From: Photorhabdus heterorhabditis | Lineage (GTDB): Bacteria; Pseudomonadota; Gammaproteobacteria; Enterobacterales; Enterobacteriaceae | Reading direction: 5' to 3' | Assembly: GCF_018448905.1 (NCBI RefSeq) | Contig: NZ_RCWA01000008.1 | Span: 1 to 64,000 of the forward strand | DNA length: 64,000 nucleotides | In this document: in pieces, positions 2,499 to 57,425 of the stretch | How positions within the stretch are numbered: the stretch's first letter is position 1 | Layout: every line of letters begins with the position of its first letter | Made by a program: the position numbers and the translations under genes | Notes under the pieces: model-generated | Seen by the model: the letters and a program-made list of their open reading frames with translations, nothing else | The model's database searches: none | What the model was told of the DNA's origin: nothing

Positions 2499-3470
2499 CT
2501 ATTCATCCCAACGCCACAAGGCACTCATGCCAGGACGCAAACCTTCAATAGGCTGTACGGGATACAAGCGAACTTCAAAAGTTCTTAAATCGAAATCACC
2601 AGTCGCACGAGTTGCTCGTTTGGTCGCATAATCTCCCATCGAGGAGATATAACGAACTTCTGCTTCAATCTCTTTATCTCCCAACGCCGGAACACGAAGT
2701 TTGAATTTATCCCCTTTATGTACTTTTGCCAGAATATCTTCCCGCAGGTTATAAACAAAATAAGCTTCTGGTACACGGACTAACGTCACCAGCGGGCTGT
2801 TGGCATTAAATAATTCACCCACTTCTGCCGGAATCGGCCCAACTTCACCCTCGACTGGCGCTTTAACCTGTAAATCATCCTTCTGGGTTTGTAACTCAAT
2901 GAGTTGCTGTTCAGCCTGACGCAGAGCCGCCGCATATTTCTGGCGTAGCTCAATCCTGTCACCATGCACACCTTCATCTAACGCGGCTTTTGCTCCCTGC
3001 ATTTTTTGATAGGCAACATCCCTGTTTCTGCGGGCGTTATCCAGTTCATTTGGTGAAACGTAGCCTTTAGATGCGATGTTCTGGATACGGTTATATTCAC
3101 GTATCGCATTATCATATTCAGCCTGAGCTTGCGCTAAAACCGCCTCCAAATTTCGAATACTTTCTTCACGCGTACCATGCAAAGATTGCTCTAACTGGGC
3201 CTTAGCCTGATCACGGACAGCTTCCAATGAAGCGACTTGAGCCAGTAACTCAGGGCTTTCAAGTGTGATCAGGAGCTGACCGATTTTAACATCATCTCCC
3301 CGCTCGACATGACGTTCAATCACCCGGCCCTTGGCTTTGGATGCCACAATCACTTCCGGCGCATCAACTTCACCTTGCAACAACAAATATTGGTTATGAG
3401 AACGAAATAACACAGCCATTGCTGTGAGCAGAATAACCAGTAAGATCGTAAAAAGTGTTCTTTTTTTCAT
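2499..3470 (-). CDS. HlyD-family periplasmic adaptor (membrane fusion protein)
   Basis: The 323-residue protein has an N-terminal signal anchor (about residues 5-22), a lipoyl/barrel-sandwich half-motif near 40-75 (EVIVASKAKGRVIE and a VKIGQLLITLESPELL stretch), a long charged coiled coil (about 75-200), the returning lipoyl half (VKAPVEGEVGPI, about 202-213) and a C-terminal beta-barrel. This is the YhiI/YbhG-type adaptor that links an inner-membrane pump to a TolC-like outer-membrane channel. It is the first gene of the minus-strand operon with the two ABC-2 permeases and is divergent from btsS, with a 234-bp AT-rich shared promoter region between. Confidence 0.9.
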   Translation of the reverse strand: MKKRTLFTILLVILLTAMAVLFRSHNQYLLLQGEVDAPEVIVASKAKGRVIERHVERGDDVKIGQLLITLESPELLAQVASLEAVRDQAKAQLEQSLHGTREESIRNLEAVLAQAQAEYDNAIREYNRIQNIASKGYVSPNELDNARRNRDVAYQKMQGAKAALDEGVHGDRIELRQKYAAALRQAEQQLIELQTQKDDLQVKAPVEGEVGPIPAEVGELFNANSPLVTLVRVPEAYFVYNLREDILAKVHKGDKFKLRVPALGDKEIEAEVRYISSMGDYATKRATRATGDFDLRTFEVRLYPVQPIEGLRPGMSALWRWDE

Positions 3471-49529: not shown

Positions 49530-49655
49530 TATACCCGTTATCTTTCAAGTTGCCCTTTGTTGGCTGCACTCACTCACCCCAGTCACAGAGTTATCTATGC
49601 TCCCGGAGATTCGCTCCCTTGCTGTCGCGATCCATCTTGAAATCCATAAGGTATA
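49530..49655. repeat. ERIC element, copy 2
   Basis: A 126-bp palindromic element bounded by TATACCC and GGTATA. It is near-identical to the copy at 30205 and in the same orientation in the window. It lies between cysQ and the fklB terminator, 29 nt upstream of cysQ. Confidence 0.9.
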
Positions 49656-49765: not shown

Positions 49766-50386
49766 TTATAGAATATCCAGTAACTCCACTTCAAAAATCA
49801 GCGCGCTGTATGGAGGAATCGATGCACCAGCACCATTCTCACCATAAGCCAAATTATGTGGGATATAAAGTTCCCATTTAGAACCAACAGGCATCAAGGT
49901 TAATGCTTCGATCCATCCGGCAATCACACCATTTACTGGAAATTCAGCAGGTTCACCACGTTGAATTGAACTGTCGAACACAGTGCCATCAATTAAGCGG
50001 CCAGTATAATGAACACGTACATGGTCAGTACGGGCAGGAATTGCACCATCACCCTGTTTCAGTACAGAGAACTGCAAACCAGATTCTGTCGTACTTATAC
50101 CATCACGCTGAGCGTTTTCTGCCAGAAACTTCTGACCCTCTTCTGCCATAGCCTGCTGACGTTCACGGCGCACACCATCCGCACGTTCATGCATTTCACG
50201 TAAAGCACGATGCAGTGTTTCAACTGGCACCGCTGGAGACTGACTTTCCAACGCATCACATAACCCTGCTAACAGTGCTTCCGGCTCCAGACCTTGCAGG
50301 CCAGATTCCAATAATTGCTGACCAACTTGCAAGCCAACCCCATAACTTGCTTGTGCTTCGATAGAGTCAAAAGAAAGTTTTGCCAT
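49766..50386 (-). CDS. fklB: FKBP-type peptidyl-prolyl isomerase FklB (FKBP22)
   Basis: Cytoplasmic proline isomerase. The 206 residues equal E. coli FKBP22. The N-terminal helical dimerisation domain (1-95, [18 protein letters not shown]) and C-terminal FKBP fold (about 100-206; [56 protein letters not shown]) are intact. The 324-bp gap upstream (50387-50710) shows no further gene; only AT-rich sequence leading to the LuxR gene. Confidence 0.97.
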
Positions 50387-50710: not shown

Positions 50711-51421
50711 ATGAATACTTTATTTAATGAAGCCTTATTGGAAATTCAGAAGACCAAAACCATACCAGAATTAGAAGATAAGGTACTAAATGCTATAAAT
50801 TATCTTGACTTTGAATTCTACTCAATTTATCAAGAAGAAAAATACCCATTCACGACAAAAAAATATGTTCTAATAACCAATTTAAACACAGAATCCATGG
50901 GTGGTTATAATAGAAATGACCATCATGACAGTGATCAACTAATGAATGGTGATTTTATTTTCTCTATCCCTTCAATTTGTAATGATAAAACATCAGAGCA
51001 TACTGATTTCATGATTAAAAAAACCAATCAAAATGAGATTAGAAACAGTATTTCAATTAAAATCAAAGGCTACCATGGAGAAAGATCAATTTTTTCAGTG
51101 TCCAGAAAAGAAGGCGCTATCTCCCACAATGAAATACTTAACAAAGCAGGAATGTTAGGAATATTAGCGAATGAATGCATAAAAACGTTTAATAACTTAA
51201 AAAATAAAAAGGATAAGATAATCGTTCCAACACTGTCCACAAGAGAAGTCGAAGTAATAAGATGGACTTGCGAAGGAAAAACATCTGCTGAAATAGCCAA
51301 TATACTGGATATATCAACAAGAACAGTTAATTTCCACATTAATAATGTTATGGAAAAATTAGTTGTCCCCAACAAAGTTGCTGCGGTTGCCAAAGCAATA
51401 GCGTATAACCTGATTATATAA
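50711..51421 (+). CDS. LuxR solo with PluR-like signal-binding pocket
   Basis: The 236 residues start MNTLFNEALLEIQ; GGGAGA precedes the ATG. The N-terminal autoinducer-type domain (about 15-160) has IRNSISIKIKGYHGE, matching the end of AHL-binding sheets. The C-terminal LuxR HTH is at about 173-230 (LSTREVEVIRWTCEGKTSAEIA). No LuxI is in the window. Aligning to TraR by spacing, the six ligand positions W57/Y61/D70/P71/W85/G113 become S62/Y66/D75/Q76/C90/S113. AHL receptors read WYDPWG; Photorhabdus PluR, a photopyrone receptor, reads TYDQCS. So the ligand is probably not an AHL. Convergent to the decayed genes that follow. Confidence 0.88.
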   Translation: MNTLFNEALLEIQKTKTIPELEDKVLNAINYLDFEFYSIYQEEKYPFTTKKYVLITNLNTESMGGYNRNDHHDSDQLMNGDFIFSIPSICNDKTSEHTDFMIKKTNQNEIRNSISIKIKGYHGERSIFSVSRKEGAISHNEILNKAGMLGILANECIKTFNNLKNKKDKIIVPTLSTREVEVIRWTCEGKTSAEIANILDISTRTVNFHINNVMEKLVVPNKVAAVAKAIAYNLII

Positions 51422-51457
51422 TAATTATAACCAAATTGAGGCTCTAATCAGATGGAA

Positions 51458-51880
51458 CTATGAAATATAGTTCGCCAAAATGCTTTGACAACCATCATTA
51501 ATCTCATTCACCAGGGATTCACATTTGATATATTCATCATTAATATGCACACAAATATAATCACAGAAATCATTATTACTCTTAAGTATTTATTAAGTGT
51601 ATGAATTCTTATCCAAATTAATTTTCATTGCAATTATTTCATAATCTAAATGATCAACCAAAATTTCCTACAAAAATTTGATTGCCGCCACGCTGCGTAA
51701 CCGATTGAGCAAAAACAACAGGAATTTTACTTCTACCTTTGACAGCCACGACACCAAGATTTCCCCGACCGCAGTTAGGTTTAATCATCACACCATACGG
51801 AACAAAATCATAAAACTCTTCCAACTACTGAACTTCATTAAAGATAAAAATGAAGCACTATTGGTCGAGGTATACACTAT
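51458..51880 (-). pseudogene. Frame-broken remnant, possibly a metallopeptidase
   Basis: Minus-strand coding signal continues through at least three shifted frames. One (51824-51654, 56 codons) includes PYGVMIKPNCGRGNLGVVAV and IPVVFAQSVTQRGGNQIFVG. The next (51667-51593) reads EILVDHLDYEIIAMKINL. The third (51589-51458) reads NDFCDYICVHINDEYIKCES and ends ILANYIS. A weaker fourth lies upstream to about 51880. The H-x-x-DEYI-x-x-x-SLV ending resembles the last zinc-ligand region of M20-type peptidases, but the family call is tentative. Frame changes and internal stops show it is dead. The rest of the gap to 52155 holds an ERIC element. Confidence 0.5.
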
Positions 51881-51963
51881 ACAAGCACAGTAAACATAAT
51901 AATTTTATGAAAATTCTGTGTATCATTAGTATTACCTCAACCTTATTATCTATCCCATTAAGC

Positions 51964-52090
51964 TATACCCTTCATCCTTCAAGTTACTGCTTTGTTGGCT
52001 GCGTTCACTTACCCCGGTCACAAAGTTATCTATGCTCCCGGGGATTCGTTCCCTTGCCGTCGCGATCCATCTTGAAATCCATAGGGTATA
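51964..52090. repeat. ERIC element, copy 3
   Basis: A 127-bp ERIC palindrome from TATACCC to GGTATA, same orientation as copies 1 and 2. It lies 66 nt from the 3' end of the carbamoyltransferase gene and next to the broken 5' side of the decayed gene at 51458-51880. Confidence 0.9.
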
Positions 52091-52155
52091 ACAAATAATT
52101 CTCTAATTAACTGAACCAATTACGCCTGCTGGGATAGACTTTTACCACTAAAAAA

Positions 52156-53853
52156 TTAATGAATAGATTTAATCAAATAATTGCCCAGAACTAAATAATC
52201 AATATTTGTTTTCATGAAAGTTTTAATAGCATCATCAGGAGAACAAACGATTGGTTCACTATCGTTATAAGAGGTATTCAGCAACATAGGAACACCTGTT
52301 TTCCGATAAAATTCTTCAATCAACTGAGCATAACCTGAATTTGACCCGCTATCTACAACCTGAACTCTAGCAGTACCATCCTCATGAACGACTGCCGGAA
52401 TTTGCAATGCTTTATCTACTTTAGCATCCATCGCCAACAGCATATATTTTGCAGCTTCAGGTAATTCTTTCCGAACATGGAACCAATCAGCCACATGCTG
52501 ACGTAGTACGCTAGGCGCAAACGGTCTGAACATTTCACGATGTTTAACTTTACGATTCATCAAATCCCGAATATCTTTATTTCTCGGATCTGCCAACAAA
52601 CTACGATTACCAAGCGCTCGCGGCCCAAACTCCATTCTCCCCTGGAACCAGCCAACCACATTATTTTCAGCCAATAAACCTGCCACTACTTCATAAATAT
52701 TCTCTTCATATGTCCACTCCAAACCATAGGCTTTCAAACTACGCTGGTAATCATCTTCACTATATTCAAGCCCCCAATATGTGTGAGTCAAAGGATAACG
52801 TTGATTATTTCCAAGAATCTGATGCCAAATAAATAATGCGGCACCTGTAGCAGTCCCTGCATCATGTGCGGCAGGCTGAACAAAGATATCTTCGATATCC
52901 AATTCCTCATATAATCGTTTATTCGTTATGCAATTTAATGCAACACCACCCGCAAGACAGAGTTTATTCGTTGCTGTTTCCTGCAAATAATGACGAGCCA
53001 TATTTAAAACTATCTCATCAGTTATTTGCTGAAGAGATGCAGCAATATCATAGTATTCCTGTGCAACTTCTCCACCAGGCACTCTTTTCTCAATACCAAA
53101 CAGGGATTCTAATTTAGAAAATTCTTCGATGCGGAAATCAAGAATGGTGTGGTCGATAGTAAACTCGCCTTTCTCACCAACCTTAACTAATTGTCGAAAC
53201 GCCGGCATAAAACCTTCAGGTTTACCATAAGCGGACATTCCCATCACCTTACAAGCATCGTATACAGAGAAACCCAGAAATTCTGCCAATTTCTCCCACA
53301 TAAAACCGATTGAATTAGGATATTCAATGGTTTTAATTTTTTTCATGCTATTACCATCGCCCAGATATACCCCTGCGGTATTATCCTCTCCAACACCATC
53401 CAGTGATAATGTTAGCGCTTTATCAAATGGCGAAACAAAATAAGCAGATGCCGCATGGGCGGTGTGATGTGGAACCCAATGAAATTGACCACGAAATCCC
53501 ATTGATTGTAAAATCTCTGGCACTGAAGTGATTTTACGATAGAAAATTGATTCACCTGATTCACTTCCCCAGCTTCCTTCATTCGTTACTTCATCAATGA
53601 AGATTGACTTTCTTCGTTCTATCGGATCAATAGAATATCCGATATGGCTCACATCTTCCAAACTAATACCTGCAAAGTTTAATGCAACTTCAATGGAAGC
53701 TAATGGTAATTCATCTGGATTATCAATATTTGCTGGTTTACCGTGTTTCCTCCTATTCAATCGCTCCTCTTCAATAGCAAAAATAGTTTTTCCATCTTTT
53801 AATAAACAAACTGCTGATTCATGGTAAACAGAATTTATACCTAAAACATACAT
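52156..53853 (-). CDS. NodU/TobZ-family carbamoyltransferase
   Basis: The 565 residues are full length for the family (TobZ about 570). The N-terminal Kae1-like domain starts MYVLGINSVYHESAVCLLKDG, with metal-site histidines in VPHHTAHAASAYF (near 128-140) and DAGTATGAALF. LCLAGGVALNC and the YrdC-like C-terminal part with FGPRALGNRSLLADPR and MLLNTSYN follow. Such enzymes transfer a carbamoyl group from carbamoyl phosphate, via carbamoyl-AMP, to a hydroxyl or amine of a secondary metabolite. No frame damage. It is the last gene of the minus-strand island, after a gap with remnants. Acceptor unknown. Confidence 0.88.
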   Translation of the reverse strand: MYVLGINSVYHESAVCLLKDGKTIFAIEEERLNRRKHGKPANIDNPDELPLASIEVALNFAGISLEDVSHIGYSIDPIERRKSIFIDEVTNEGSWGSESGESIFYRKITSVPEILQSMGFRGQFHWVPHHTAHAASAYFVSPFDKALTLSLDGVGEDNTAGVYLGDGNSMKKIKTIEYPNSIGFMWEKLAEFLGFSVYDACKVMGMSAYGKPEGFMPAFRQLVKVGEKGEFTIDHTILDFRIEEFSKLESLFGIEKRVPGGEVAQEYYDIAASLQQITDEIVLNMARHYLQETATNKLCLAGGVALNCITNKRLYEELDIEDIFVQPAAHDAGTATGAALFIWHQILGNNQRYPLTHTYWGLEYSEDDYQRSLKAYGLEWTYEENIYEVVAGLLAENNVVGWFQGRMEFGPRALGNRSLLADPRNKDIRDLMNRKVKHREMFRPFAPSVLRQHVADWFHVRKELPEAAKYMLLAMDAKVDKALQIPAVVHEDGTARVQVVDSGSNSGYAQLIEEFYRKTGVPMLLNTSYNDSEPIVCSPDDAIKTFMKTNIDYLVLGNYLIKSIH

Positions 53854-54090
53854 GGCCTATTATCCTCATAGTTATTTTATCTTGAATATCAAGCAGCACA
53901 AGCTACCACCAATCGCTAAGAATTTAATCATATTGCATTTGACGAAATTGTAACCATAACGTTCAACATTTACAGAACAATCATGCATTAGAGTATGTTT
54001 ACCTATTGAAATGTTATTACATGAAAATAATTATTTGGCATCATATTATGACATTGATATTCTTCGTTCAAATGTTTCAGCAATATAATA

Positions 54091-54356
54091 TTAGTTTTCT
54101 TTAGTAAGTATTTCTGGGTAATAAATGACAGTGCACTCATCAATAAATTGAAATTCTATGACCATATAAAAAAACATTATCCTGAATATGCAACTAAGAT
54201 TTATCCCTCAGCTCTGGATACCCTTTTTTATTTATTACTTCTTTATATGATCCAAGACTATAACCCAATTTTTCCAAATAATCTATAGTACTGACTTTCA
54301 CCCTAACGATCAGCATACCGGAAACTACTGGCAAAAAATTTGTTATTAAGATTCAT
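54091..54356 (-). other. Gap with short minus-strand coding remnants
   Basis: The 511-bp gap between the carbamoyltransferase and the ArgG-like gene (53854-54364) has no intact gene. A frame down to 54194 (from ATG 54316, 40 codons; STIDYLEKLGYSLGSYKEVI) and another at 54165-54091 (24 codons; FQFIDECTVIYYPEIL) have protein-like composition but no recognisable family. They may be the ends of deleted pathway genes, or chance frames. Confidence 0.25.
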
Positions 54357-54364
54357 CAAAAAAT

Positions 54365-55555
54365 TCATCTCATTTTAGGTTTAGCGCTTTGTTTATTATA
54401 GATATTAAATTTCTTTTCAAATACCTCGGTATGATTTTGACTATATAACCCTCCCCGGTTATATATTGCTAGATTATGACCATAAATACGGGTCTTTGAA
54501 GTACGAAAGCAAACATTGACATACTTATAACCTAACTCAAGCGTAACCTCACCATTGACATTTTGGTTCATGCTATCAATAAAATGGTTTAAATGAGTTA
54601 ATAAAGGATTATACCAAAGGCCAGAATAAACTAGTTCACCCCATTTTTTATCGATTATCTCTTTAAACCAATTTTCGTTACAATTACTACAATAGCATTC
54701 CAAATCACGGTGAGCGGTAATTAAGATATGTGCAGCAGGTGATTGATAAATTGCACGTGTTTCCAAGCCAACAACACCATCTTCAACAATTTCAAAAATA
54801 CCAATTGATAGTCTTTTACCAATTTCATTTAATATTTCAATAATTTCATATAATGATTTTTTTTCACCATCAAGTGATATAGGTATACCATTCTCAAAAT
54901 CTAATGACAAAAATATTGGTTCAGTAGCTGATAGTGCACGCTCAAATAATTTCTCTTTGATATCTTCAGGAAGTAACATTTCTGAATTTTCCAACGGACT
55001 ACACTCGATACTGAATCCGCCTATATTTTCATGGATAGAATAAGGGTTATTACAATCAGATTCTTGAGGAATACCATACCGCATAGCATAATTATATACG
55101 ATATTTTCATCGTATTTAAACTCTCTCAATGCAGCAATAGGTATTTTATTCAGAATTTCTATATTCATATCTATTCTGACTTGATCATTACCACTGAATT
55201 GATGTGCAATATAATCAATATTAAGATCATTTGCCACTTCAACTGCCGCTTCAGCAATTGCTGATCGGGAAAGTTCAGTACTAAGAAAACAACCATTTTG
55301 ATAAGTAGCATTCGCTTTTATCGCTTTTGAAATAAAATTTTCAACATATTGTATTCTATAATCTTTATAAATAAATTTATCAGCACCCGCAACCATGCAC
55401 TCCAATTCAATGTCTTCAATATCCTCAATATCTCTTACTTTACCCTCATCAATATAAAGAGAAATCACCTCTTTAAATTCATACTTAAGACTTCTGATGA
55501 TAAGAGGATTGTAGCGGCGATTATAATAAATCACCAAAACACTATTAGAATTCAT
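54365..55555 (-). CDS. Argininosuccinate-synthase-like protein lacking the PP-loop
   Basis: The 396 residues align along the whole ArgG fold: FSGNDQVRIDMNI (ArgG GNDQVRFE), NPYSIHENIGGFSIEC (SPYSIDENLWGRSIEC), RAIYQSPAAHILITAHRDLE and WGELVYSGLWYNPL. In true ArgG the N-terminal strand ends in the ATP-binding AYSGGLDTS; here the same place reads IYYNRRYNP, so the SGGxDTS PP-loop is gone. It may no longer bind ATP canonically, may do a different reaction, or may be drifting. The start overlaps the end of the upstream SbnA-like gene by 11 nt, so they form an operon. It is not the housekeeping argG. Confidence 0.75.
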   Translation of the reverse strand: MNSNSVLVIYYNRRYNPLIIRSLKYEFKEVISLYIDEGKVRDIEDIEDIELECMVAGADKFIYKDYRIQYVENFISKAIKANATYQNGCFLSTELSRSAIAEAAVEVANDLNIDYIAHQFSGNDQVRIDMNIEILNKIPIAALREFKYDENIVYNYAMRYGIPQESDCNNPYSIHENIGGFSIECSPLENSEMLLPEDIKEKLFERALSATEPIFLSLDFENGIPISLDGEKKSLYEIIEILNEIGKRLSIGIFEIVEDGVVGLETRAIYQSPAAHILITAHRDLECYCSNCNENWFKEIIDKKWGELVYSGLWYNPLLTHLNHFIDSMNQNVNGEVTLELGYKYVNVCFRTSKTRIYGHNLAIYNRGGLYSQNHTEVFEKKFNIYNKQSAKPKMR

Positions 55556-56390
55556 TTAGCGAGTCCCCCTCTCTTATAATAATTTCTTCTAAGCCAGGCT
55601 CCATTGTGCTTTGCTGAATTAATTCTGAGAAATTACTTTCAGATAACCAGGCGTTGTTATAAATGGTGTCTATGTAACGTTCCCCACCATCAGGAATAAT
55701 GACAACAATATTATCTCCAGGATTAAAATCATCTAAAGGATCTAATGCAGCATAAACCGAACACGCTCCCGTTTCTCCAATCAAAATGCCTTCACTTCTA
55801 GCTAATTTTTTTGCCTTCCCGAATACATCAATATCTGCAACCTTTAAAGTAAAATCGATGTGATTGATATCGAGAATAGAAGGTGTAAATGGCAGCCCCG
55901 CTTCCTGTACCAAAAATTTTCCTTGTTCACCACCGAAAATAATAGATCCAACAGGTTCAACACCATAAATTCGCACTTGTGGGTTTTTCTCTTTCGAATA
56001 ACGGGAGACCCCAGTAAGCGTTCCACAACCTCCTGCCGTCGTAAAACAAGCTGCCAAATTATCACCAAAGGTTTCACACAACTCACGTCCTGTAGAGTGA
56101 TAATGTTCATCGGGATTAACCGGATTCTCAAATTGCATGGGACTGAACGCATTTGGATATGTTTTTACAATATTTTTGGCTAAATCTATAATATTTCTAC
56201 CTGTCTTCATACCCATTTTGTCTCTCATTTTCTGACTAATGTGAAAAATATACAACGATGACAAGGTATTTTTATTCTAAAATAAGCAAAGTACTTTTAT
56301 GTTTCATTAATAGATTAATTCATCAATGAAATTACCTACTTTAGAAATAATCCCATAAAATAATATCATTCCTATTATAAGTAATTTCAT
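55545..56390 (-). pseudogene. SbnA-like PLP synthase with internal deletion
   Basis: The 3' part (to 56264, about 239 codons) aligns with the C-terminal two thirds of SbnA-type cysteine-synthase homologues: HYHSTGRELCETFGD, CFTTAGGCGTLTG (phosphate loop), GVEPVGSIIFGG, GACSVYAALDPL, IIPDGGERYIDTIYNNAWL. The 5' end survives separately: ATG at 56390 reads MKLLIIGMILFYGIISKVGN, the family IxxxxGNTPL start, then runs to a stop at 56307. Roughly residues 22-110, including the PLP-binding lysine, are missing. So this first gene of the operon is inactive. SbnA makes an amino-acid precursor of 2,3-diaminopropionate. Confidence 0.75.
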
Positions 56391-56432
56391 TTATCTACGC
56401 TCTTATAAAATAATTAATTAACATAGATAATG

Positions 56433-56475
56433 ATTATAAATTCCCGCCCAGAAGTCTACTGTCAATATTGACAGT
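56433..56475 (-). promoter_or_regulatory. Lux-box-like palindrome and -10 element of the accessory operon
   Basis: ACTGTCAATATTGACAGT (56458-56475) is a perfect 18-bp palindrome with the CT-N12-AG pattern of LuxR-type boxes. On the minus strand, TATAAT (56438-56433) follows after 19 nt, placing the box centre near -41, where LuxR-class activators overlap the -35 region. The SbnA-like start codon is 43 nt past the -10 element. The rest of the AT-rich gap 56391-56972 has no gene that I can see. Confidence 0.65.
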
Positions 56476-56972: not shown

Positions 56973-57425
56973 TTAAGCTTCAGCAACAATGTTAACGTTC
57001 AGTTTCGCGAATACATCGCTGTGTACCTGGAAGTGAACTTCATGTTCACCAGTGGTACGCAGAACACCATTAGGCAAGCGAACTTCGCTTTTAGATACTT
57101 CAATACCTGCCGCAGTAACTGCATCAGCGATATCACGAGTACCAACAGAACCAAACAGTTTACCTTCGTCACCTGCTTTAGAAGCAATAGTAACAGAACC
57201 CAGCTCACTGATTTTCTCAGCGCGAGCTTCTGCTGCTGCCAGAACATCAGCCAGTTTAGCTTCTAGTTCAGCGCGGCGAGCTTCGAAGAATTCGATGTTT
57301 TTCTTAGTCGCAGGAACAGCTTTTCCCTGTGGTACTAAGTAGTTACGGGCATAGCCCGGTTTAACGTTAACTTGATCACCCAGGCTACCCAGGTTAGCTA
57401 CTTTATCAAGCAGAATAATTTGCAT
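56973..57425 (-). CDS. rplI: Ribosomal protein L9
   Basis: 50S protein with two globular RNA-binding domains joined by a long helix. The 150 residues (E. coli 149) start [19 protein letters not shown], with the conserved [19 protein letters not shown] and the connecting helix [25 protein letters not shown]. Last gene of rpsF-priB-rpsR-rplI. Confidence 0.98.

What the first reader, a model, noticed from the sequence alone, without database searches (positions are those of the whole stretch)
50711..56475. Decaying quorum-controlled pathway between fklB and rplI, possibly a relic of the pcf locus
A LuxR solo faces a minus-strand operon: SbnA-like synthase (deleted), ArgG-like protein (PP-loop lost), coding remnants, NodU-type carbamoyltransferase (intact), further remnants and an ERIC element. 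From memory, P. luminescens carries pluR next to pcfABCDEF, the clumping-factor operon, in the same general chromosomal area. The arrangement suggests this strain inherited that locus or a relative and is losing it while promoter and regulator remain.
Basis: partly seen in the sequence, partly recalled or inferred. Interest (0 to 1): 0.75.

Follow-up and report, generated by a model that had tools for sequence, protein, structure and literature searches.

The report
Broken Photorhabdus clumping-factor operon
One Photorhabdus genome carries a half-deleted copy of the signal-controlled operon that relatives use to make a clumping factor, yet one enzyme gene in the wreck still looks under natural selection, which makes it a natural knock-out worth a test.

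Summary
Window 50711-56475 is the pluR-pcfABCDEF locus (Photorhabdus clumping factor) at its usual place between fklB and rplI. All 12 other genus genomes examined, and a P. akhurstii locus, have pluR plus six full-length pcf genes there; only the window genome is broken. Lost: nearly all of pcfE, most of pcfF, and about 120 residues of pcfA including the PLP-lysine segment; pcfC is broken by two deletions and stops. pluR, pcfB and pcfD keep full-length frames. Two corrections: the absent ArgG 'PP-loop' is not decay (all 17 PcfB sequences aligned lack it), and the ERIC-like element sits at the same junction in 4 of 13 intact operons. New: on the window's branch pcfB and the rest of pcfA evolve under relaxed constraint (dN/dS 0.23 and 0.43; backgrounds 0.08 and 0.13), while pcfD, the carbamoyltransferase, stays constrained (0.04; background 0.06), and a candidate regulator box before pcfA is kept. 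Brenneria salicis holds another pcf relic, found by searching with pcfD and also keeping it. Most likely the clumping-factor pathway is dead in this genome; pcfD may have kept a use of its own, or been renewed by recombination.

The parts
49766..50386 (-). fklB, left flank of the locus
   Evidence: 88.9-93.9% DNA identity, present in all 12 fetched intervals
50711..51421 (+). pluR (LuxR-type receptor/regulator), 236 aa, frame intact; signal-pocket motif SYDQCS
   Evidence: Autoind_bind 27.2 bits, GerE 70.5 bits; 82% identity to the G007 copy; motif by alignment
51458..51649 (-). pcfF (ATP-grasp-like ligase), 3' remnant
   Evidence: residues 369-434 of 435; match with two TAA
51668..51824 (-). 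pcfF, middle remnant
   Evidence: residues 143-203 of 435; match with one TAG
51840..51966 (-). pcfE (MFS exporter), 5' remnant only
   Evidence: 67.9-71.8% DNA identity in the 5 of 6 relatives where this piece aligned on its own
51964..52091 (.). ERIC-like element, 127 bp, at the pcfE-pcfD junction; shared with 4 of 13 intact operons
52156..53853 (-). pcfD, NodU/TobZ-type carbamoyltransferase, 565 aa, intact frame, constrained on the window branch
   Evidence: 97% identity to P. asymbiotica; dN/dS 0.041
53868..54348 (-). pcfC (arginine-dihydrolase/DDAH-like), relic with two deletions (about 84 and 210 bp net against G002) and stops
   Evidence: residues 163-267 of 267 with three TAA; further piece at 54260-54348
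54365..55555 (-). pcfB (ArgG-like protein without PP-loop), full-length frame, relaxed constraint on the window branch
55545..56264 (-). pcfA (SbnA/cysteine-synthase-like), about 120 residues lost including the PLP-lysine segment
56459..56474 (.). palindrome CTGTCA-N4-TGACAG upstream of pcfA, candidate PluR box
   Evidence: one match in the 64-kb window and one in each of the 13 other Photorhabdus loci, upstream of pcfA; about 0.003 expected per 64 kb from base composition
56973..57425 (-). rplI, right flank
   Evidence: in 11 of the 12 fetched intervals; for the twelfth (G010) found at the end of L058, the longer locus of the same contig

Best explanation
The stretch is a degenerate pluR-pcfABCDEF locus. 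In relatives the LuxR-type receptor PluR/PauR senses a self-made signal and switches on pcfA-F, which lead to an unidentified clumping factor (published). Here several deletions have removed an exporter, most of a ligase and the cofactor-binding half of the first enzyme, and broken a hydrolase-like enzyme, so the pathway cannot run (inferred from the sequence). The receptor gene, a candidate receptor box before pcfA and the carbamoyltransferase gene pcfD remain. pcfB has a whole frame but is already drifting. pcfD alone of the enzyme genes shows no drift, so it was either kept by selection for a use outside the clumping pathway or refreshed by recombination from an intact relative.
For: Same place in 12 of 12 other genus genomes. 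In the window genome pcfF and pcfC matches lie only here; for pcfA the locus fragment is the best match and the others are much weaker relatives. Lesions in four of six genes. Against G002 the aligned pieces on either side of two joints overlap by 7 bases (pcfA) and 10 bases (pcfC), as in deletions between short repeats, but against G001 and G007 the pcfA joint shows no overlap. dN/dS on the window branch with gene-specific trees: pcfB 0.227, background 0.078 (LRT 18.5); pcfA retained part 0.431, background 0.126 (LRT 10.6); pluR 0.200, background 0.084 (LRT 3.7, borderline); pcfD 0.041, background 0.060 (LRT 1.1; a value of 0.2 rejected with LRT 24.6). Amino-acid changes at sites invariant in the 13 others set against synonymous changes at invariant codons: pcfD 6 and 12, pcfB 39 and 7, pcfA 19 and 5 (pcfB against pcfD p = 0.0001, pcfA against pcfD p = 0.004). 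Published: plu4565 mutants no longer make the clumping factor (PMC4486325, passage); plu4565 = pcfD is my inference from the plu4562 and pau4062-4068 numbering.
Against: The locus is a recombination mosaic: the window's pcfA groups with a second pcfA copy of G004, P. caribbeanensis (100% support), and the whole-length pcfB tree leaves the window outside its sister species (84%; its C-terminal part alone does not, 59%), so branch rates are not one simple history. pcfB still has an open frame. Only one genome of this species was available, a draft of 226 contigs; strain-level variation was not tested. pcfE was not searched as a protein genome-wide, and the DNA search scored 40 of 473 candidates. 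The control fklB also has a raised, non-significant window value (0.127, background 0.049, LRT 1.9). One paper passage holds that clumping is mainly due to phage tail fibres (PMC12502680), so loss of pcf need not mean loss of clumping.
Confidence: 0.9

Rival explanations
1. A shortened but working variant: the remaining genes (pluR, pcfA fragment, pcfB, pcfD) form a slimmed pathway that makes another product.
For: Three frames plus the regulator are open; the pcfA fragment is one open frame; the candidate box is kept. pcfD is constrained.
Against: The pcfA fragment lacks the cofactor-lysine segment. pcfB and pcfA show relaxed constraint on the window branch, with changes at otherwise invariant sites. 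None of the 13 other Photorhabdus loci compared has this form.
Confidence: 0.05
2. pcfD was simply renewed by homologous recombination from a relative with an intact operon, and has had no time to decay; it has no function of its own.
For: Mosaic signal: identity to P. asymbiotica (G002) is 94-98% in the five 200-bp bins of 52700-53699, 89-90% in the three of 52100-52699, and 81-87% across pcfB.
Against: The branch length of the first 384 pcfD codons (0.074) is like that of fklB (0.086), as vertical descent would give; the last 181 codons are as diverged (0.243) as pcfA (0.238) yet have dN/dS 0.022, rejecting 0.2 with LRT 19.4. Synonymous divergence to G002 is 0.27 for pcfD and 0.26 for fklB (rplI 0.15). 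A long branch made in a donor lineage before import would look the same, so this is not excluded.
Confidence: 0.4
3. Sequencing or assembly artefact.
For: Draft assembly of 226 contigs.
Against: The lesions lie inside one contig; the relic pieces are diverged (68-86% DNA identity, one 29-bp piece apart) and carry separate stops, which mis-assembly does not produce.
Confidence: 0.02

Closest known systems
pluR-pcfABCDEF of Photorhabdus laumondii/luminescens (PpyS/PluR photopyrone signalling)
   Same: Same position, gene order, regulator and box; against G007 (taken for a TTO1-like strain, recalled) pluR is 82% and pcfD 94% identical in protein
   Different: Operon broken; no full-length ppyS-like gene in the window genome; signal-pocket motif SYDQCS instead of TYDQCS
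pauR-pcfABCDEF of Photorhabdus asymbiotica (DarABC/PauR dialkylresorcinol signalling)
   Same: Sister lineage by fklB, pluR and pcfD trees; DarB-like gene in the window genome; no full-length ppyS-like gene in either
   Different: Operon intact there; motif TYDQYI there; window pcfA and pcfB are of more distant allelic origin
pcf-like locus of Brenneria salicis ATCC 15712 (L062)
   Same: Also a relic: the start of pcfA lies next to the end of pcfC, pcfB gone, pcfE frame broken; pcfD and LuxR gene open
   Different: Other joints, so an independent event; pcfF still whole; pairwise dN/dS of pcfD, pcfF and pluR much as between two intact Pectobacterium copies (no test made)

Membership tests
pluR-pcfABCDEF locus | Position between fklB and rplI, LuxR gene convergent with a six-gene operon | tested here: met
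   position and orientation shared with 12 of 12 other genus genomes
pluR-pcfABCDEF locus | LuxR-type receptor with Autoind_bind and GerE domains and Y66/D75/Q76 | tested here: met
pluR-pcfABCDEF locus | Six intact genes pcfA-F | tested here: not met
   only pcfB and pcfD have full-length frames
pluR-pcfABCDEF locus | Receptor-dependent promoter before pcfA | tested here: inconclusive
   conserved palindrome present; that PluR binds it was not tested, and the published site is not spelled out in the passage read (PMC5407808)
pluR-pcfABCDEF locus | Makes clumping factor | not testable with these tools
   needs culture
NodU/TobZ-type carbamoyltransferase superfamily (PcfD) | Carbam_trans_N and Carbam_trans_C domains over gathering score | tested here: met
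   176.9 and 229.9 bits; matches to solved novobiocin-, GdmN- and TobZ-type enzymes
NodU/TobZ-type carbamoyltransferase superfamily (PcfD) | HHxxHAxSAY, DGxGE and HDAGxA motifs (their active-site role is recalled, not from a call) | tested here: met
   H129, H130, H133, D152, D331 invariant in the 8 sequences aligned; these positions matched in solved chain 9s2t
Nodulation protein NodU proper | NCBIfam NodU equivalog cut-off (1000 bits) | tested here: not met
   164.2 bits
Argininosuccinate synthase (PcfB) | ATP-binding SGGxDT PP-loop (role recalled) | tested here: not met
   YNRxYNP in its place in all 14 Photorhabdus and the 3 outside sequences aligned
Argininosuccinate synthase (PcfB) | NCBIfam argG model TIGR00032 cut-off (268.2 bits) | tested here: inconclusive
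   G007 PcfB scores 284.1, over the cut-off; the window's scores 244.7, under it
SbnA-type 2,3-diaminopropionate synthase (pcfA fragment) | PLP-lysine segment (SIKDR; role recalled) | tested here: not met
   residues 37-156 of the intact protein are missing
SbnA-type 2,3-diaminopropionate synthase (pcfA) | NCBIfam SbnA cut-off (349.95 bits) | tested here: not met
   window fragment 144.1, intact G007 PcfA 293.6; so SbnA-like only

The most novel reading that the evidence does not exclude
PcfD has a job outside the clumping-factor pathway: a carbamoyltransferase kept by selection, perhaps still under the old quorum regulator, after the rest of its operon died, in Photorhabdus and perhaps independently in Brenneria. 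The clumping operon would then have been built around, or have lent out, a carbamoylation step with a life of its own.
Probability: 0.35. Interest if true: 0.5.

Novelty: new member of a known kind. Interest (0 to 1): 0.36.

Why it matters
The pcf operon is the published output of the PluR and PauR non-AHL signalling systems, tied in print to clumping and insect virulence and, by unpublished results cited there, to nematode re-association (passages), while its product was described as unknown (PMC4486325, passage). A species that has lost it is a natural knock-out: its biology shows what can be done without the factor. The contrast between a drifting pcfB and a constrained pcfD points to a testable second role for one enzyme.

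Tried and rejected
Rejected: 'PP-loop lost' as decay (all 17 PcfB sequences aligned lack it). Rejected: ERIC-like element as lesion (4 of 13 intact operons carry it at the same junction). Rejected: assembly artefact. Weakened: a simple vertical history of the locus; gene trees differ, so the first dN/dS run on one shared tree was repeated on gene-specific trees and on parts of pcfB and pcfD, with the same outcome. The branch test was made for 7 terminal branches (8 for pcfA with the second copy), without correction for many tests; values over 3.84 on other branches (pluR G002 8.1, pcfB G003 7.1, N-terminal pcfB G003 7.3; also pcfB G009 5.2) all go towards stronger constraint.

Led nowhere or weak: pcfB and pcfD profiles over 394 genomes drawn from the order gave only the window genome at the strict cut-offs used. 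The Brenneria comparison shows no clear relaxed constraint in pcfD, pcfF or pluR, so it neither helps nor hurts the pcfD idea; and that locus was found with pcfD as query, which favours loci that keep pcfD. DNA searches with whole pcf loci found matches in 2 of 25 genomes of the P. betavasculorum genus group and 2 of 30 of the X. szentirmaii genus group, the queries' own genomes included, none a remnant without pcfD: too few to count as a test. Eight paper searches showed no report of pcf decay or of a second role of this carbamoyltransferase in listings or in the passages read from eight papers; no paper was read whole.
Full report
What is there. The window lies on contig C8 of a 5.05-Mb draft genome of 226 contigs. 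P. heterorhabditis is a guess from memory. Between fklB (49766-50386) and rplI (56973-57425) lie a LuxR-type gene and, on the other strand, the remains of an operon.

Identity of the locus. A search of the 12 other genus genomes with the whole interval hits the same place in 12 of 12. Fetched intervals show, in all 12 and in a P. akhurstii locus (L056), a LuxR gene followed by six minus-strand genes: ATP-grasp-like ligase (23.8 bits, under Pfam's cut-off of 27), MFS exporter, NodU-type carbamoyltransferase, arginine-dihydrolase/DDAH-like protein, ArgG-like protein, SbnA/cysteine-synthase-like protein (for G007). fklB was found in 12 of 12 fetched intervals and rplI in 11; for G010 rplI appears at the end of L058, the longer locus of the same contig. 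Published passages give PluR = Plu4562, PauR = Pau4062 and pcfABCDEF = pau4068-pau4063 next to pauR (PMC4235431; PMC4683029), and state that plu4565, a carbamoyltransferase, is needed for the Photorhabdus clumping factor, whose structure was then unknown (PMC4486325). The numbering makes plu4565 pcfD (my inference). G007 is taken for a P. laumondii TTO1-like strain from size and layout (recalled).

How it is broken. Against relatives (six compared piece by piece): pcfF keeps its 3' end (51458-51649) and a middle piece (51668-51824), with stops; pcfE keeps only its 5' end (51840-51966); pcfC keeps its C-terminal part with three TAA stops plus a short piece, with two deletions of about 84 and 210 bp net against G002; pcfA has lost residues 37-156 of the intact protein, including the SIKDR segment that holds the PLP lysine in this fold (the lysine's role is recalled). 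Against G002 the pieces overlap by 7 and 10 bases at the pcfA joint and one pcfC joint, which fits deletion between short repeats; against G001 and G007 the pcfA joint shows no overlap. pluR, pcfB and pcfD have whole frames. No intact pcfA, pcfC or pcfF was found elsewhere in the genome, all first-look candidates being scored. The DNA search listed only ERIC-like copies outside the locus (57 matches) but scored 40 of 473 candidates; pcfE was not searched as a protein.

The ArgG-like protein has YNRxYNP where ArgG has its SGGxDT loop in all 14 Photorhabdus sequences and in Pectobacterium, Xenorhabdus and an Enterobacteriaceae MAG. The ERIC-like element at the pcfE-pcfD junction is also in 4 of 13 intact operons (G005, G007, G009, G010).

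Drift and constraint. A two-rate branch model (own script; branch lengths scaled from nucleotide trees, no correction for many tests) was first run on one shared tree. Gene trees then showed that the locus is a mosaic: the window's pcfA groups with a second pcfA copy in G004 (P. caribbeanensis) with 100% support, and the whole-length pcfB tree leaves the window outside its sister species with 84% (N-terminal part 91%, while the C-terminal part puts it next to them with 59%). The model was therefore rerun on gene-specific trees. Window-branch and background dN/dS: pcfB 0.227 and 0.078 (LRT 18.5); pcfA retained part 0.431 and 0.126 (LRT 10.6; 1.0 barely rejected, LRT 3.9); pluR 0.200 and 0.084 (LRT 3.7); fklB 0.127 and 0.049 (LRT 1.9); pcfD 0.041 and 0.060 (LRT 1.1). 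The second pcfA copy of G004 has 0.246 and 0.135 (LRT 1.8). For pcfD a value of 0.2 is rejected (LRT 24.6), in its first 384 codons (LRT 5.8) and its last 181 (LRT 19.4). Values over 3.84 on other branches (pluR G002 8.1, pcfB G003 7.1) go towards stronger constraint. Changes at sites invariant in the 13 others: pcfD 6 of 479, pcfB 39 of 300, pcfA 19 of 156, pluR 5 of 178, fklB 2 of 184. Set against synonymous changes at invariant codons (12, 7, 5, 5, 2), pcfB and pcfA differ from pcfD (p = 0.0001 and 0.004), pluR and fklB do not (0.44, 0.60). Synonymous divergence of pcfD to G002 (0.27) equals that of fklB (0.26; rplI 0.15), so recent import is not needed to explain it, but the mosaic means it is not excluded.

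Regulation. The window PluR has SYDQCS at the six signal-pocket positions; of the 13 others 8 have TYDQCS, 2 (G002, G003) TYDQYI, 2 NYDQCS and 1 TYDQYS. Published motifs are TYDQCS (PluR, photopyrones) and TYDQYI (PauR, dialkylresorcinols). A ppyS-like gene (taken from G007 as the likely plu4844; identity recalled) is full length in 5 of 13 genus genomes including G007 itself, not in the window genome. A DarB-like ketosynthase is present there (627 bits for the StlD/DarB model, over its cut-off; 508 for the DarB model, below its cut-off of 550). Which signal the receptor senses is open. A palindrome CTGTCA-N4-TGACAG upstream of pcfA occurs once in the window and once in each of the 13 other Photorhabdus loci; about 0.003 would be expected by chance in 64 kb from base composition. 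It is a candidate PluR box; the paper passage read says a site exists but does not spell it (PMC5407808). It is absent from the four loci outside the genus.

Outside the genus. A scan with PcfD found 16 loci: 12 Photorhabdus, and Brenneria salicis, Pectobacterium betavasculorum, an Enterobacteriaceae MAG and Xenorhabdus szentirmaii. Brenneria holds a relic: a match to the first 74 residues of pcfA lies next to one to the last 30 of pcfC, pcfB is gone (also genome-wide, apart from a weak 56.6-bit ArgG-like hit), pcfE is split between frames, pcfD, pcfF and the LuxR gene are whole. The MAG has lost most of pcfE. These loci were found with pcfD as query, so that all keep pcfD is partly built in.

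Reading. The clumping-factor pathway is dead in this genome (inferred, strong). Whether clumping itself is lost is not known; one passage ascribes clumping mainly to phage tail fibres (PMC12502680). Regulator and promoter may still act (inferred). pcfD is intact and constrained (shown by sequence); that it has its own use is one of two live explanations, the other being renewal by recombination.

Noticed in passing
L107:3453-4526 (-), with a pcfB remnant at about 2937-3452: P. caribbeanensis (G004) carries a second pcfA with a decayed pcfB fragment between a rep-like helicase gene and an ilvC-like gene (labels recalled from the sequence); the window's pcfA groups with this copy (100% support).
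   Followed up: partly
54365-55555 and alignment A1: PcfB is an ArgG relative in which an invariant YNRxYNP replaces the ATP-binding PP-loop while much of the rest is kept; its chemistry should differ from argininosuccinate synthesis.
   Followed up: partly
L062, whole locus: Brenneria salicis ATCC 15712 has a separate pcf relic with pcfA-C largely deleted and pcfE frame-broken.
   Followed up: partly
G000 and 12 genus genomes: A ppyS-like gene is patchy: full length in 5 of 13 genus genomes (G004, G007, G008, G011, G012); the other 8 show only weak 23-26% hits. A review passage calls ppyS adjacent to pluR (PMC10134790); in G007 the ppyS-like gene lies about 290 kb from pluR.
   Followed up: no
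49530-49655: A second ERIC-like copy lies on the far side of fklB, 88% identical to the one at 51964-52091.
   Followed up: no
L038:10548-11432 (-): In G007 a transposase-like 294-aa gene (label recalled) lies between pcfA and rplI, flanked by pieces of the ERIC-like element.
   Followed up: no
L064: The Enterobacteriaceae MAG has lost most of pcfE and holds an ERIC-like element at that place.
   Followed up: no
PluR positions 62 and 90: The signal-pocket motif varies more than the two published forms: SYDQCS (window), NYDQCS (G009, P. akhurstii), TYDQYS (G011, P. tasmaniensis).
   Followed up: no
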